This document shows, one piece after another, positions 23 through 33,989 of a stretch of DNA of 36,334 nucleotides (the stretch's first letter is position 1; each line of letters opens with the position of its first letter). The translations under genes and the position numbers were made by a program. Source of the DNA: Clostridia bacterium (GTDB taxonomy: Bacteria > Bacillota > Clostridia > Christensenellales > Aristaeellaceae); the NCBI GenBank assembly GCA_017552615.1, contig JAFZPI010000031.1:1-36334 (forward strand), written 5' to 3'. Under the pieces are notes generated by a model, which worked only from the letters and a program-made list of their open reading frames with translations, had not been told where the DNA came from and did not search any database.

Positions 23-138
23 TCCGGTGGCAATGACGAAGGGGTCCCACCTGTTCCCATCCCGAACACAGAAGTTAAGCCCTTCAGTGCCGAAAGTACT
101 TGGCTGGACACGGCCCGGAAGCATAGGTCGCCGCCGGA
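23..138 (+). rRNA. rrf: 5S ribosomal RNA
   Basis: The segment starts TCCGGTGGC and ends GCCGCCGGA, which pair as the closing helix I of 5S rRNA. In between lie the conserved loop strings CCCATCCCGAACACAG, GAAGTTAAGC and AGTACTTGGCTGG. The length of about 116 bases is normal. It would be the last gene of an rRNA operon whose 16S and 23S genes lie left of the window. A terminator hairpin follows directly. Confidence 0.97.
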
Positions 139-146
139 TCCCATCT

Positions 147-177: not shown

Positions 178-184
178 TACAAAA

Positions 185-216
185 AAGAAAACCGATTACC
201 ATCTAACGGTTTTCTT
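185..216. terminator. Bidirectional terminator hairpin
   Basis: AAGAAAACCG and CGGTTTTCTT form a perfect 10-bp stem with A-rich and T-rich outer arms, so it can stop transcription both ways. On the minus strand it overlaps the end of the XRE gene (stop codon at 203-205) and runs into a T run, so it is probably that gene's own terminator. Confidence 0.75.
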
Positions 217-445
217 CTATATCATCTCGTTCAGATAATTGGACTGGTGTTTTGATTAAGTCTGCAATGTAATCCAATGATACGTTATAAAGCTTTGCCA
301 AACGAATTGCAAGTTTGAAGGGTATTTCTCTCTTTCCTTGCTCATAATTTGTATATGTTGTCTTTGGAATCTTTAGTATAGCTACGAGCTGATCTTGTGT
401 GAGATCGTGGTCTTCTCGGAGGTCGCGTAATCTTCTGTAGTACAG
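203..445 (-). CDS. XRE-family HTH transcriptional repressor, CTG start
   Basis: This is an 80-residue helix-turn-helix regulator that is open on the minus strand but has no ATG, GTG or usable TTG start. The product reads LYYRRLRDLRE..LTQDQLVAIL..PKTTYTNYEQGKREIP..LAIRLAKLYNVSLDYIADL. This is the Cro/C1 (HTH_3) fold almost end to end, residues 2-65, with a short acidic tail. A stop codon lies in frame at 458-460, so initiation must be at CTG (443-445) or ATT (449-451). The ribosome binding site GGAGG (453-457) sits 7 bases before the CTG but only 1 base before the ATT, so I choose CTG. Homologues I recall begin with a similar YYRRLRDLRE string. It is divergent from the membrane peptide gene at 560, with two inverted repeats between them that are its likely operators. 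The A/T-rich composition differs from the rest of the window and suggests acquisition. Confidence 0.85.
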   Translation of the reverse strand: MYYRRLRDLREDHDLTQDQLVAILKIPKTTYTNYEQGKREIPFKLAIRLAKLYNVSLDYIADLIKTPVQLSERDDIEENR

Positions 446-475
446 ACGAATCCCTCCTCATTCCACCACAATTCA

Positions 476-504
476 TTGACAAAATAACACGTATGTGGTA
501 TAAA
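476..504 (+). promoter_or_regulatory. Sigma-A promoter of the small membrane protein gene
   Basis: TTGACA (476-481), a 17-base spacer and TATAAA (499-504) are close to consensus. Transcription should start near 511. The spacer contains the imperfect operator 484-501, and the perfect palindrome 514-533 covers the first transcribed bases, so a bound repressor would block it twice. Confidence 0.85.
484..501. promoter_or_regulatory. Putative operator O1 (imperfect)
   Basis: ATAACACGTATGTGGTAT matches the core of the downstream palindrome at 14 of 18 positions and lies between the -35 and -10 boxes. Its centre is 31 bases from that of the second site, about three helical turns, so both would face the same side of the DNA. 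Confidence 0.6.
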
Positions 505-513
505 TGAGCCAGG

Positions 514-533
514 AATACAACATATGTTGTATT
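514..533. promoter_or_regulatory. Putative operator O2 (perfect 20-bp palindrome)
   Basis: AATACAACATATGTTGTATT is its own reverse complement across all 20 bases. It lies 10-29 bases downstream of the -10 box of the plus-strand promoter, in the gap between the divergent repressor and membrane peptide genes. A homodimeric HTH repressor is the expected ligand; this assignment is inference from position and symmetry. Confidence 0.7.
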
Positions 534-559
534 TGCAAAACAAGAAGGAGGAATATTAT

Positions 560-709
560 ATGTCACTTACAGGTCGTGATGGTGCTACATATGTTCGTAG
601 TCAACAGGGACACAGCATAATTTTCTGGCTGTTTCTCTCATGCTTTGGCATTGGCATTCCGTTTTTGATTTATTACACCGTTAGCAAGAATCATTACTGG
701 CATGCTTGA
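560..709 (+). CDS. 49-residue single-span membrane protein
   Basis: The start at 560 is set by AAGGAGG 8 bases upstream. An in-frame ATG at 524 lies inside the operator palindrome and has no ribosome binding site. The peptide has a polar N-terminus (MSLTGRDGATYVRSQQGHS), one hydrophobic span of about 21 residues (IIFWLFLSCFGIGIPFLIYY) and an aromatic/His tail (NHYWHA). The GHS and NHYWH strings at the two membrane edges look conserved rather than random, but I cannot name a family. No signal peptidase site is evident. The gene stands alone between its own promoter and terminator and appears to be the main target of the divergent XRE repressor. It could be a toxic peptide, a superinfection or stress factor, or a signalling peptide; the sequence does not decide. 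Confidence 0.8.
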   Translation: MSLTGRDGATYVRSQQGHSIIFWLFLSCFGIGIPFLIYYTVSKNHYWHA

Positions 710-770: not shown

Positions 771-798
771 CGGAAGTGTGTCAGACACTTCCGTTTTT
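771..798 (+). terminator. Intrinsic terminator after the 49-residue gene
   Basis: CGGAAGTGT and ACACTTCCG form a perfect 9-bp stem with loop GTCAG, followed by five T. Confidence 0.85.
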
Positions 799-848: not shown

Positions 849-1103
849 TTACTTGACGGCGGGCTTGTAATACAGGTAGTCACCGGTGAAGATCAGGTTG
901 CGGTTCGTGATCTTGGGGTTCCAGTTCAGCAAGTCCTTGACCGTGCACTTGAACTGCCGGGCCAGACGGCCGAGGGTGTCCCCGCGCTTGATCTGATAGA
1001 TTTCAAAGCCTTCCTTGTCCTTCGGGCGCTTGTAGCCGCCGGTCGCAAGATCCAGGTCTTCCAGGTTCAGTTCGATTGCTTCAAAGTTTTCAAAATCCGT
1101 CAT
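849..1103 (-). CDS. Small LysM protein with double-glycine leader-like N-terminus
   Basis: The protein has 84 residues. ATG at 1101-1103 is preceded by AGGAGG 9 bases away; the frame stays open upstream, but that extension overlaps the permease gene in another frame. Residues 34-79 are a LysM peptidoglycan-binding domain (YQIKRGDTLGRLARQF, DLLNWNP, TGDYLYY). Residues 10-23 read IELNLEDLDLATGG, which has the spacing and acidic/hydrophobic pattern of double-glycine leaders of bacteriocins and Nif11-type peptides cleaved by C39 peptidase transporters. There is no Sec signal peptide. If the leader is real, cleavage after G23 would release a 61-residue LysM protein to the cell wall. It lies 131 bases downstream of an ABC-2 transporter pair on the same strand; that transporter has no peptidase domain here. 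The LysM call is firm, the leader call is inference. Confidence 0.85.
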   Translation of the reverse strand: MTDFENFEAIELNLEDLDLATGGYKRPKDKEGFEIYQIKRGDTLGRLARQFKCTVKDLLNWNPKITNRNLIFTGDYLYYKPAVK

Positions 1104-4331: not shown

Positions 4332-4745
4332 TCAAGACAGGATTTTTAGGAACTGATCAGGAGTAACTGCCGGGACATCACTATGTGCAAAATCCCGAAT
4401 ATTGGCCGTGACAATGTAATCAGCAAGGCTGGTCTGCGCACAGCAATCCTGCAGGGCATCTTCAAAATCTTTGAAATCCAGGTTGTGAACGGCCTTGAGT
4501 ACAGCTTGGTTGTCTGCTCCCGAGAGCGTGAGCAATTCACAGATTTGGATGATCCAATCGCGTCTTGTTTCATTTGGAAGCTTGCGTGCTATATACCAGA
4601 CAGTTGACAGCGTATGAAAGGCAACAAATCCTTCCACTTTCTCTTCCGCACACAGCTTCATGATCTGGTCGGTCTGTTCAGAATACTTGTCTTCCCTTCC
4701 GGAGACATAAGTGAGCACGAGATTAGTGTCAATCAAAACGCGCAT
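4332..4745 (-). CDS. PIN-domain ribonuclease toxin
   Basis: The 137-residue protein begins MRVLIDTNLVLTYVSGRED, the first acidic strand of PIN nucleases (D6). It ends with the acidic stretch FKDFEDALQ, then DYIVTANIRDF and VTPDQFLKIL, as in PIN_3-type VapC-like toxins. These proteins are Mg-dependent RNases that cut tRNA or other RNAs. The start has a GAGGGG site, and the gene begins 12 bases after the partner gene. The usual PIN middle acidic position falls in VAFHTLSTVW and is not obvious, though this subfamily often looks like that. Composition is more A/T-rich than its neighbours, as expected for a mobile toxin-antitoxin pair inserted between typA and infC. Confidence 0.85.
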   Translation of the reverse strand: MRVLIDTNLVLTYVSGREDKYSEQTDQIMKLCAEEKVEGFVAFHTLSTVWYIARKLPNETRRDWIIQICELLTLSGADNQAVLKAVHNLDFKDFEDALQDCCAQTSLADYIVTANIRDFAHSDVPAVTPDQFLKILS

Positions 4746-4757
4746 TCATCTGCCCCC

Positions 4758-5018
4758 TCAGGCCAATTTACCATACTTTTCTTCAAGTGCTTCGGATCTC
4801 TGAAGCATCGACAGGTCATAAGCAGCTGTGATTTTTCTGAGTTCCTGCATTCTCTGGTAGGCTTTCATCTTGGGAGACAAAATATCCCCGACTTTAGCAG
4901 ATGCATCATTCGTGTCCCTTTCTTTGGGCAACATCAAAACCATGATTCTGACGATGGCGTTGATGCTTTCTTCCGGCAATTGCCGGATCAGCGTATAGGC
5001 TTGTTCTTGAACGGTCAT
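4758..5018 (-). CDS. Antitoxin of the PIN toxin
   Basis: The protein has 86 residues. ATG at 5016-5018 is 9 bases after GGAGG, while the ATG two codons upstream is only 3 bases away. The N-terminus (TVQEQAYTLIRQLPEESINAIVRIMVLML) is predicted helical, like the short antitoxins that dimerise and bind DNA. The C-terminal half (KMKAYQRMQELRKIT, RSEALEEKYGKLA) is charged and helical, fitting a toxin-neutralising tail. It directly precedes the PIN gene in the same transcript. No classic AbrB or ribbon-helix-helix signature is clear, so the call rests mainly on context. Confidence 0.7.
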   Translation of the reverse strand: MTVQEQAYTLIRQLPEESINAIVRIMVLMLPKERDTNDASAKVGDILSPKMKAYQRMQELRKITAAYDLSMLQRSEALEEKYGKLA

Positions 5019-5052
5019 CCACATTCACCTCCTACTTTTGATTACTGGTTTC

Positions 5053-33965: not shown

Positions 33966-33989
33966 TCCCCGACAGCTGTCGGGGATTTT
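33966..33989 (+). terminator. Terminator of the rpmH-jag cluster
   Basis: TCCCCGACAG and CTGTCGGGGA form a perfect 20-base palindrome, followed by TTTTG. Confidence 0.9.

What the first reader, a model, noticed from the sequence alone, without database searches (positions are those of the whole stretch)
203..709. Compact repressor/membrane-peptide module with two phased operators
An XRE-type repressor and a 49-residue single-span peptide are divergently encoded. The peptide promoter (TTGACA-17-TATAAA) has a 14/18-matching operator in its spacer and a perfect 20-bp palindrome over the first transcribed bases, 31 bp apart (about three helical turns). Terminators bound both genes. Tight control of a tiny hydrophobic peptide, in an A/T-rich patch beside an rRNA operon, suggests a toxic or signalling peptide module that moves as a unit.
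Basis: partly seen in the sequence, partly recalled or inferred. Interest (0 to 1): 0.72.

Follow-up and report, generated by a model that had tools for sequence, protein, structure and literature searches.

The report
Fixed XRE repressor-promoter with swapped cargo
A tiny repressor and its two-site promoter recur across many gut bacteria in front of quite different genes; here they stand before a small membrane peptide of a phage type, so the switch, not the peptide, appears to be the constant part.

Summary
In detail: XRE gene (203-445, minus), 49-aa peptide gene (560-709, plus), TTGACA-17-TATAAA at 476-504, an imperfect operator at 483-502 in the spacer and a perfect 20-bp palindrome at 514-533, 31 bp apart. 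Correction: the XRE has no ATG/GTG/TTG start; relatives point to CTG. The proposed unit does not hold. The peptide belongs to a phage accessory ("moron") family (38 phage records; 31 viral contigs), and 2 of 44 peptide loci carry this kind of XRE. What is conserved is XRE plus promoter. In 308 genomes of the family, 29 loci (window included) carry this XRE clade; 24 of 29 have TTGACA, an in-spacer operator and a second operator 30 or 31 bp on. Behind these lie at least 13 first genes without mutual BLASTP match. In 9 chosen pairs that share both chromosomal flanks, the XRE-promoter aligns while the first cargo stretch is no more alike than shuffled DNA. Best reading: a private repressor switch whose cargo is exchanged; here the cargo is a phage-type membrane peptide, perhaps for superinfection exclusion. 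Binding, repression and peptide function are untested.

The parts
203..445 (-). XRE (Cro/CI-type HTH) repressor gene, 80 aa, inferred CTG start at 445-443, TAG stop at 203-205
   Evidence: HTH_3 E 4.5e-13; start aligned with relatives; codons checked
452..459 (-). Shine-Dalgarno GAGGAGGG of the XRE gene
   Evidence: sequence
179..216 (-). inverted repeat plus T run behind the XRE gene (terminator-like)
   Evidence: I2, sequence; not flagged
481..486 (-). possible -10 of the XRE gene (TATTTT) overlapping operator 1
   Evidence: at least 4 of 6 matches in 24 of 24 loci; inferred, and partly forced by the operator sequence
476..481 (+). -35 TTGACA of the peptide promoter
   Evidence: exact in 24 of 24 dual-operator loci
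499..504 (+). -10 TATAAA, spacer 17
483..502 (+). operator 1 in the spacer, AATAACACGTATGTGGTATA
   Evidence: 13 of 20 to the family sequence used there, 7 of 10 self-pairs
514..533 (+). operator 2, perfect palindrome AATACAACATATGTTGTATT, just past the inferred start of transcription
545..551 (+). Shine-Dalgarno AAGGAGG of the peptide gene
560..709 (+). cargo: 49-aa membrane peptide of the phage moron family (phrog_14499)
   Evidence: E 9.3e-11 over the full profile; relatives
771..798 (+). hairpin and T run behind the peptide gene (terminator-like)
   Evidence: I6, sequence; not flagged
23..139 (+). 5S rRNA gene bounding the patch on the left (neighbour, not part of the cassette)
   Evidence: Rfam RF00001, 97.3 bits

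Best explanation
A small XRE repressor and a strong divergent promoter carrying two copies of its operator form a conserved local switch; the gene placed behind the promoter is exchanged between species. Shown by sequence: the conserved block (XRE through operator 2), the 30/31-bp phasing, the near restriction of the operator to the repressor's own locus, and different downstream genes at shared chromosomal sites. Inferred: XRE dimers bind operator 1, which lies between -35 and -10 of the cargo promoter and overlaps a -10-like hexamer of the XRE gene, and operator 2 just past the transcription start, three turns away, so that the cargo is held off and the XRE limits its own synthesis. With no sensor domain, release would come from a low repressor level, for example just after the cassette enters a repressor-free cell. 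In this window the cargo is a phage-type membrane peptide; the likeliest of its possible roles is an envelope-acting superinfection-exclusion or host-takeover protein (about 0.35 for this part). Cargo exchange may use the shared XRE-promoter block as a homology arm on one side (speculative).
For: XRE clade: window plus 28 loci at 67-81% identity in 308 family genomes. Dual operator in 24 of 29 clade loci, spacing 31 in 17 and 30 in 7; TTGACA exact in 24 of 24 and a 17-18 bp spacer in 22 of 24. Operator pattern with at most 1 mismatch in 26 of 308 genomes, 24 of them beside the clade XRE (one of these about 270 bp away); reversed-pattern control 0 of 308. In IMG/VR 19 single matches; no clade XRE in the held stretches and no partner scoring above 10 of 20 at 30 or 31 bp. 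Cargo: groups of 3, 4 and 4 plus 12 singletons among 23 first ORFs; without two very short ones, 13 groups in 21 loci. Shared-site swaps; cargo identity lies within the shuffled range in 10 of 10 chosen differing pairs (9 with both flanks shared, L128/L141 with the left only), while two same-cargo pairs lie above it. Outside the family: G216 has the pair at 31 bp with another cargo; G834 has other palindromes with centres 31 bp apart. Peptide: phrog_14499, 31 viral contigs.
Against: No binding or expression data. Of 29 clade loci, 3 show no operators (L121, from the window's own genus, L132, L148), 1 has a single one (L142) and 1 has it about 270 bp away with a poor partner (L146). A 30th, partial relative (G662:C14, 68% over residues 14-70) lacks the start of the gene's match and any operator; I left it out of the count. 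G305 and G215 have downstream operators but none in the spacer. L141 has no cargo ORF, L147 and L126 only 24- and 22-aa first ORFs. Non-standard starts (CTG in the window, TTA in L122) could mean decay of some copies. The peptide is cargo of this clade in 1 of 24 loci. In genus g25 the XRE-promoter block (71-78%) is less alike than most of the flanks (mostly 83-88%, stretches at 74-79%), so replacement of the whole cassette is not excluded there. More distant XREs (52-59%) also have palindromes of other sequence ahead of them (by eye), so paired palindromes may be usual for a wider group and not special to this clade. No test of superinfection exclusion.
Confidence: 0.72

Rival explanations
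1. XRE plus peptide is a toxin-antitoxin or signalling-peptide module, the XRE restraining a toxic peptide; this is the first reader's view.
For: Divergent small XRE and tiny hydrophobic peptide; G116 pairs a related XRE with a related peptide. The XRE has sub-threshold matches to several antitoxin models.
Against: 42 of 44 peptide loci lack this kind of XRE; the same XRE clade stands before other cargo, including a large secreted M23-dockerin protein; no PADLOC match for the peptide.
Confidence: 0.1
2. Prophage remnant: a phage repressor region with its accessory gene, left after loss of the phage.
For: The peptide family is phage-borne; G638 has it beside an integrase-like gene (by eye); the XRE resembles phage and ICE repressors.
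Against: The clade XRE and the dual operator were not seen among the 19 IMG/VR stretches with the operator pattern; of 10 cargo proteins scanned, 4 have any PHROG match at 0.01, 3 of them weak; two cargo proteins had no relative in viral contigs.
Confidence: 0.12
3. The conserved block serves only autoregulation of the XRE; downstream genes are passive passengers.
For: Cargo differs from locus to locus, and a few loci lack a clear cargo ORF.
Against: A strong promoter pointing at the cargo is exact at -35 in 24 of 24 loci and operator 2 sits downstream of its inferred start; a candidate cargo ORF follows in 23 of 24.
Confidence: 0.06

Closest known systems
BrxR/CapW WYL-family regulators (PMC9122601: abstract and section list read; PMC9122588: start of abstract in a search listing)
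   Same: One regulator family stands beside diverse cargo and binds inverted repeats; BrxR is a repressor with two sites in its island (section headings).
   Different: BrxR is a multi-domain WYL protein with a proposed ligand site and, in about half of cases, defence cargo; here the regulator is an 80-aa HTH protein and the cargo scanned has mostly no known family.
R-M controller (C) proteins, such as C.Csp231I (PMC3115060, passages read)
   Same: Small XRE, two palindromic operators in one control region; in C.Csp231I they are about 18 bp apart, unusual for the group. PADLOC 'control protein' models match the XRE weakly (best E 1.1e-4).
   Different: Other operator sequences (CTAAGN5CTTAG there), no restriction-modification genes among the cargo scanned, cargo not constant.
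RptR (PMC12255303, abstract and section list read)
   Same: Small repressor with a conserved site at an island.
   Different: Three direct repeats, minimal site TAGCTA; tied to type I R-M.
ImmR of ICEBs1 (PDB 7t8i)
   Same: Related XRE domain, E 6.4e-5.
   Different: Part of an integrative element's immunity circuit, no swapped cargo (recalled).
Phage superinfection-exclusion membrane proteins such as HK97 gp15 and P22 SieA (recalled; listings only)
   Same: Small phage-encoded membrane proteins, some of them moron genes.
   Different: No sequence link tested; function of this peptide unknown.

Membership tests
phrog_14499 phage membrane protein (moron) | profile match over the full model | tested here: met
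   E 9.3e-11, residues 8-49 to profile 1-41 of 41
phrog_14499 phage membrane protein (moron) | relatives carried by phages | tested here: met
Superinfection-exclusion proteins | blocks infection by other phages | not testable with these tools
   needs phage plating
XRE (Cro/CI) HTH repressors | HTH_3 domain above cut-off | tested here: met
   49.5 bits, cut-off 23
R-M controller proteins | small XRE with paired palindromic operators | tested here: met
R-M controller proteins | restriction-modification genes under control | tested here: not met
   none among the 10 cargo proteins scanned with Pfam at 0.01; the window's cargo is the peptide
BrxR/CapW regulators | WYL domain | tested here: not met
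   Pfam matches of the 80-aa XRE at E<=1 include no WYL domain
Type II toxin-antitoxin | constant toxin partner | tested here: not met
   the partner differs between loci
Type II toxin-antitoxin | toxicity of the peptide | not testable with these tools
   needs expression

The most novel reading that the evidence does not exclude
Bacteria of this class keep a standard expression socket: a private, sensorless XRE repressor and a two-operator promoter that stay in place while horizontally acquired genes, and in one lineage perhaps a structured RNA, are plugged in behind it. The shared block would both tame newcomers at once and serve as the recombination arm through which they arrive.
Probability: 0.4. 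Interest if true: 0.78.

Novelty: new variant of a known kind. Interest (0 to 1): 0.6.

Why it matters
It would be a minimal, recurring example of regulator-first gene acquisition: foreign genes arriving under a ready-made repressor. It gives a motif with which to find unknown accessory genes, and swaps at shared sites make the route of exchange testable.

Tried and rejected
Toxin-antitoxin or signalling unit: not kept as the primary reading because the partner is not constant. Regulon: rejected at the sensitivity, since sites with at most one mismatch lie beside the repressor in 24 of 26 genomes (exceptions: G673:C35 with 1 mismatch, G168:C434 exact, 12 bases from a contig end, G168:C95 with 1 mismatch). 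Phage-borne switch: no support. Two cargo proteins sought in viral contigs gave no relative. Rfam found only 5S in the window at gathering thresholds and nothing up to E 0.1 at the RNA-like cargo of L199. Weak peptide hits L007, L008, L012, L056 and L057 were dropped as chance because they lie in longer unrelated frames. PDB search of the XRE by sequence also listed two TAL-effector chains with no stretch passing on its own, which I took as spurious. Literature: no paper describing this XRE with exchanged cargo appeared in the listings (one search returned none); only open-licence PMC papers were covered.

Full report
What is in the window. The XRE frame on the minus strand ends with TAG at 203-205 and opens at CTG 445-443 behind GAGGAGGG; no ATG, GTG or TTG is available. 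The peptide gene is 560-709 with AAGGAGG before it. The promoter reads TTGACA (476-481), 17 bp, TATAAA (499-504). Operator 1 (483-502) fills the spacer; operator 2 (514-533) is a perfect 20-bp palindrome 31 bp further on. First-order Markov sequence of the same stretch gave such a palindrome in 49 of 200,000 trials. The 175-800 stretch is 38% G+C against 61% for the window. The nearest congener's 5S regions align only to about position 173-174, and what follows 5S differs from genome to genome. The window is the whole of contig C46 of a 73%-complete genome in 49 contigs.

The peptide. It matches phrog_14499, a phage membrane protein classed as moron, at E 9.3e-11; no Pfam family reaches its cut-off (best DUF6693, E 0.073), and NCBIfam and PADLOC gave none. 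Relatives lie in 38 phage records at E<=0.01, 32 of them Microbacterium phages, and in 31 viral contigs. I mapped 8 of those contigs; in several the neighbours look like head or tail genes by eye, with the peptide gene in sense or antisense. In phiGD17-1 and GMA4 it lies between lysin and integrase genes. The core is Y-V-R-x-Q-K-G-H-S, one hydrophobic stretch, then S-P/K-N-H-Y-W-H; 10 columns are invariant in the 36 sequences that I aligned. In the bacterial family 7 of 308 genomes carry it, window included. In 44 loci (window and L013-L055, a few of them duplicates or with very short flanks) a search model built on the window and G116 repressors found this kind of XRE in 2; it would not count other XRE types, of which L034 and L087 seem to have one. 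So the peptide does not depend on this regulator.

The repressor clade. Searching the XRE in the 308 held genomes of the family gave 111 genomes with some match at 1e-12, with a top group by E-value: the window and 28 others at 67-81% identity. Just below come the G116 XRE (66%) and a partial match in G662:C14 (68% over residues 14-70), which has no operator nearby and is not counted. I fetched 5.8 to 12 kb around all 28. In 24 of 29, window included, the region ahead of the XRE gene holds two operators: spacing 31 bp in 17 and 30 bp in 7. The -35 is exactly TTGACA in 24 of 24; the best -10 scores at least 4 of 6 in 23 of 24 and the spacer is 17 or 18 bp in 22 of 24. The others: L121, L132 and L148 show none, L142 one, L146 has an operator about 270 bp away with a degenerate partner. 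A scan of the same 308 genomes for the operator with at most one mismatch hit 26; in 24 the site is beside the clade XRE, while the pattern read backwards hit none. These 24 genomes are not quite the 24 dual-operator loci: L122 and L136 fall outside the one-mismatch limit, and L142 and L146 are in. The remaining two genomes are G673 and G168. At this sensitivity the switch is private to its locus. In IMG/VR the pattern gave 19 single hits; none of the held stretches has a clade XRE and no site 30 or 31 bp away scores above 10 of 20.

Cargo. Taking the best ORF with a Shine-Dalgarno-like sequence just after operator 2 gives a candidate in 23 of the 24 loci, L141 excepted. All-against-all BLASTP at E<=0.01 groups them as 4 secreted hydrolase-like proteins (the one scanned, L127, has Peptidase_M23 and Dockerin_1), 4 small membrane-type proteins (79 aa in three, a disrupted 78-aa version in L130), 3 small Cys-rich proteins, and 12 singletons. 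Leaving out L126 and L147, whose first ORFs are 22 and 24 aa, 13 groups remain in 21 loci. Of 10 cargo proteins scanned, 2 match Pfam at 0.01 and, in a slightly different set of 10, 4 match PHROGs at 0.01, three of them weakly.

Swaps in place. Species of genera g25 (L122, L123, L125, L136, L137), g33 (L126, L139) and g17 (L143, L144, L145) share both chromosomal flanks in the pairs that I compared. In 10 differing pairs (9 of these, plus L128/L141, which share only the left flank) the alignment of the XRE block ends 56 to 109 bases from the XRE start: in 8 of 10 pairs within 7 bases of the end of operator 2, in 2 earlier (operator positions). It resumes in the common right flank. In g17 the XRE-promoter block is as alike as the flanks (84-88%), which argues that it stayed while the cargo changed; in g25 it is less alike (71-78% against mostly 83-88%), so replacement of the whole cassette is possible. 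Global alignment of the first cargo stretch gave 0.52-0.57 identity in the 10 pairs against means of 0.53-0.56 for shuffled DNA, while two same-cargo pairs gave 0.63 and 0.82. In 10 such loci the cargo stretches are 41-56% G+C between flanks of 57-65%.

Beyond the family. In 200 genomes of the order (which include the window and G013) three more relatives pass 1e-18: G834 at 65% has other palindromes with centres 31 bp apart; G849 and G729, at 57 and 51%, have no site like this operator but do show palindromes of other sequence ahead of the XRE (by eye). In 196 genomes of the class three relatives at 77-83% appear: G216 has the arrangement at 31 bp with a zinc-ribbon-like membrane protein (by eye); G305 and G215 have operators on both sides of a stretch predicted to fold as a long hairpin (-46.9 kcal/mol, z -4.83 in L199), with no operator in the promoter spacer, no ORF shared by the two (L200 has an unmatched 59-aa one) and no Rfam match in L199. 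G116 pairs its XRE with a peptide of the same family but other palindromes; one imperfect pair there is 30 bp apart, a weak observation.

How it probably works. Operator 1 would block RNA polymerase at the cargo promoter and, overlapping a -10-like hexamer on the other strand in 24 of 24 loci (partly forced by the operator itself), limit the XRE gene; operator 2 would add a second dimer on the same DNA face. These are inferences from anatomy. There is no sensor domain in the 80-aa protein, so induction is unexplained; entry into a repressor-free cell is one possibility, as in R-M controller circuits. For the peptide, exclusion of other phages is a known job of small phage membrane proteins (recalled), and remains a guess.

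Verdict. The anatomy is real, XRE plus peptide is not the right unit, and the conserved switch with exchanged cargo is the finding.

Noticed in passing
L014 3917-4224 and L060 1406-1681: Two different peptide relatives lie right behind a rubrerythrin-like gene (name by eye) in two species of one genus, each followed by a second copy of that gene's last 50-70 bases (86-93% alike): a recurrent insertion site for a one-gene cassette.
   Followed up: partly
L199 1855-2062 and the like stretch of L200: In two species of another family operators flank a predicted hairpin RNA where the cargo gene would be; only L199 was folded.
   Followed up: partly
L087 6365-8665: Peptide relative beside an integrase-like gene and an apparent tRNA end, with another XRE-like gene nearby (by eye).
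   Followed up: no
window 443-445; L122: XRE starts are often weak: 5 TTG, 1 CTG (window), 1 TTA among 29; either low repressor synthesis or decay.
   Followed up: partly
L195 and L196, ahead of the XRE gene: More distant XREs have palindromes of other sequence; the L195 palindrome resembles that of G116, whose recognition-helix region it also resembles, so operator sequence may follow the helix (by eye).
   Followed up: no
L125 and L145, left of the XRE gene: Extra genes resembling toxin-antitoxin pairs (by eye) share the variable interval.
   Followed up: no
window 852-1103 minus: Small LysM-like protein with a double-glycine leader-like start (by eye); two more copies in the genome and four in G099.
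   Followed up: no
window 4332-5024 minus: PIN-like protein next to a small antitoxin-like ORF (by eye).
   Followed up: no
window 33966-33985: A second perfect 20-bp palindrome.
   Followed up: no
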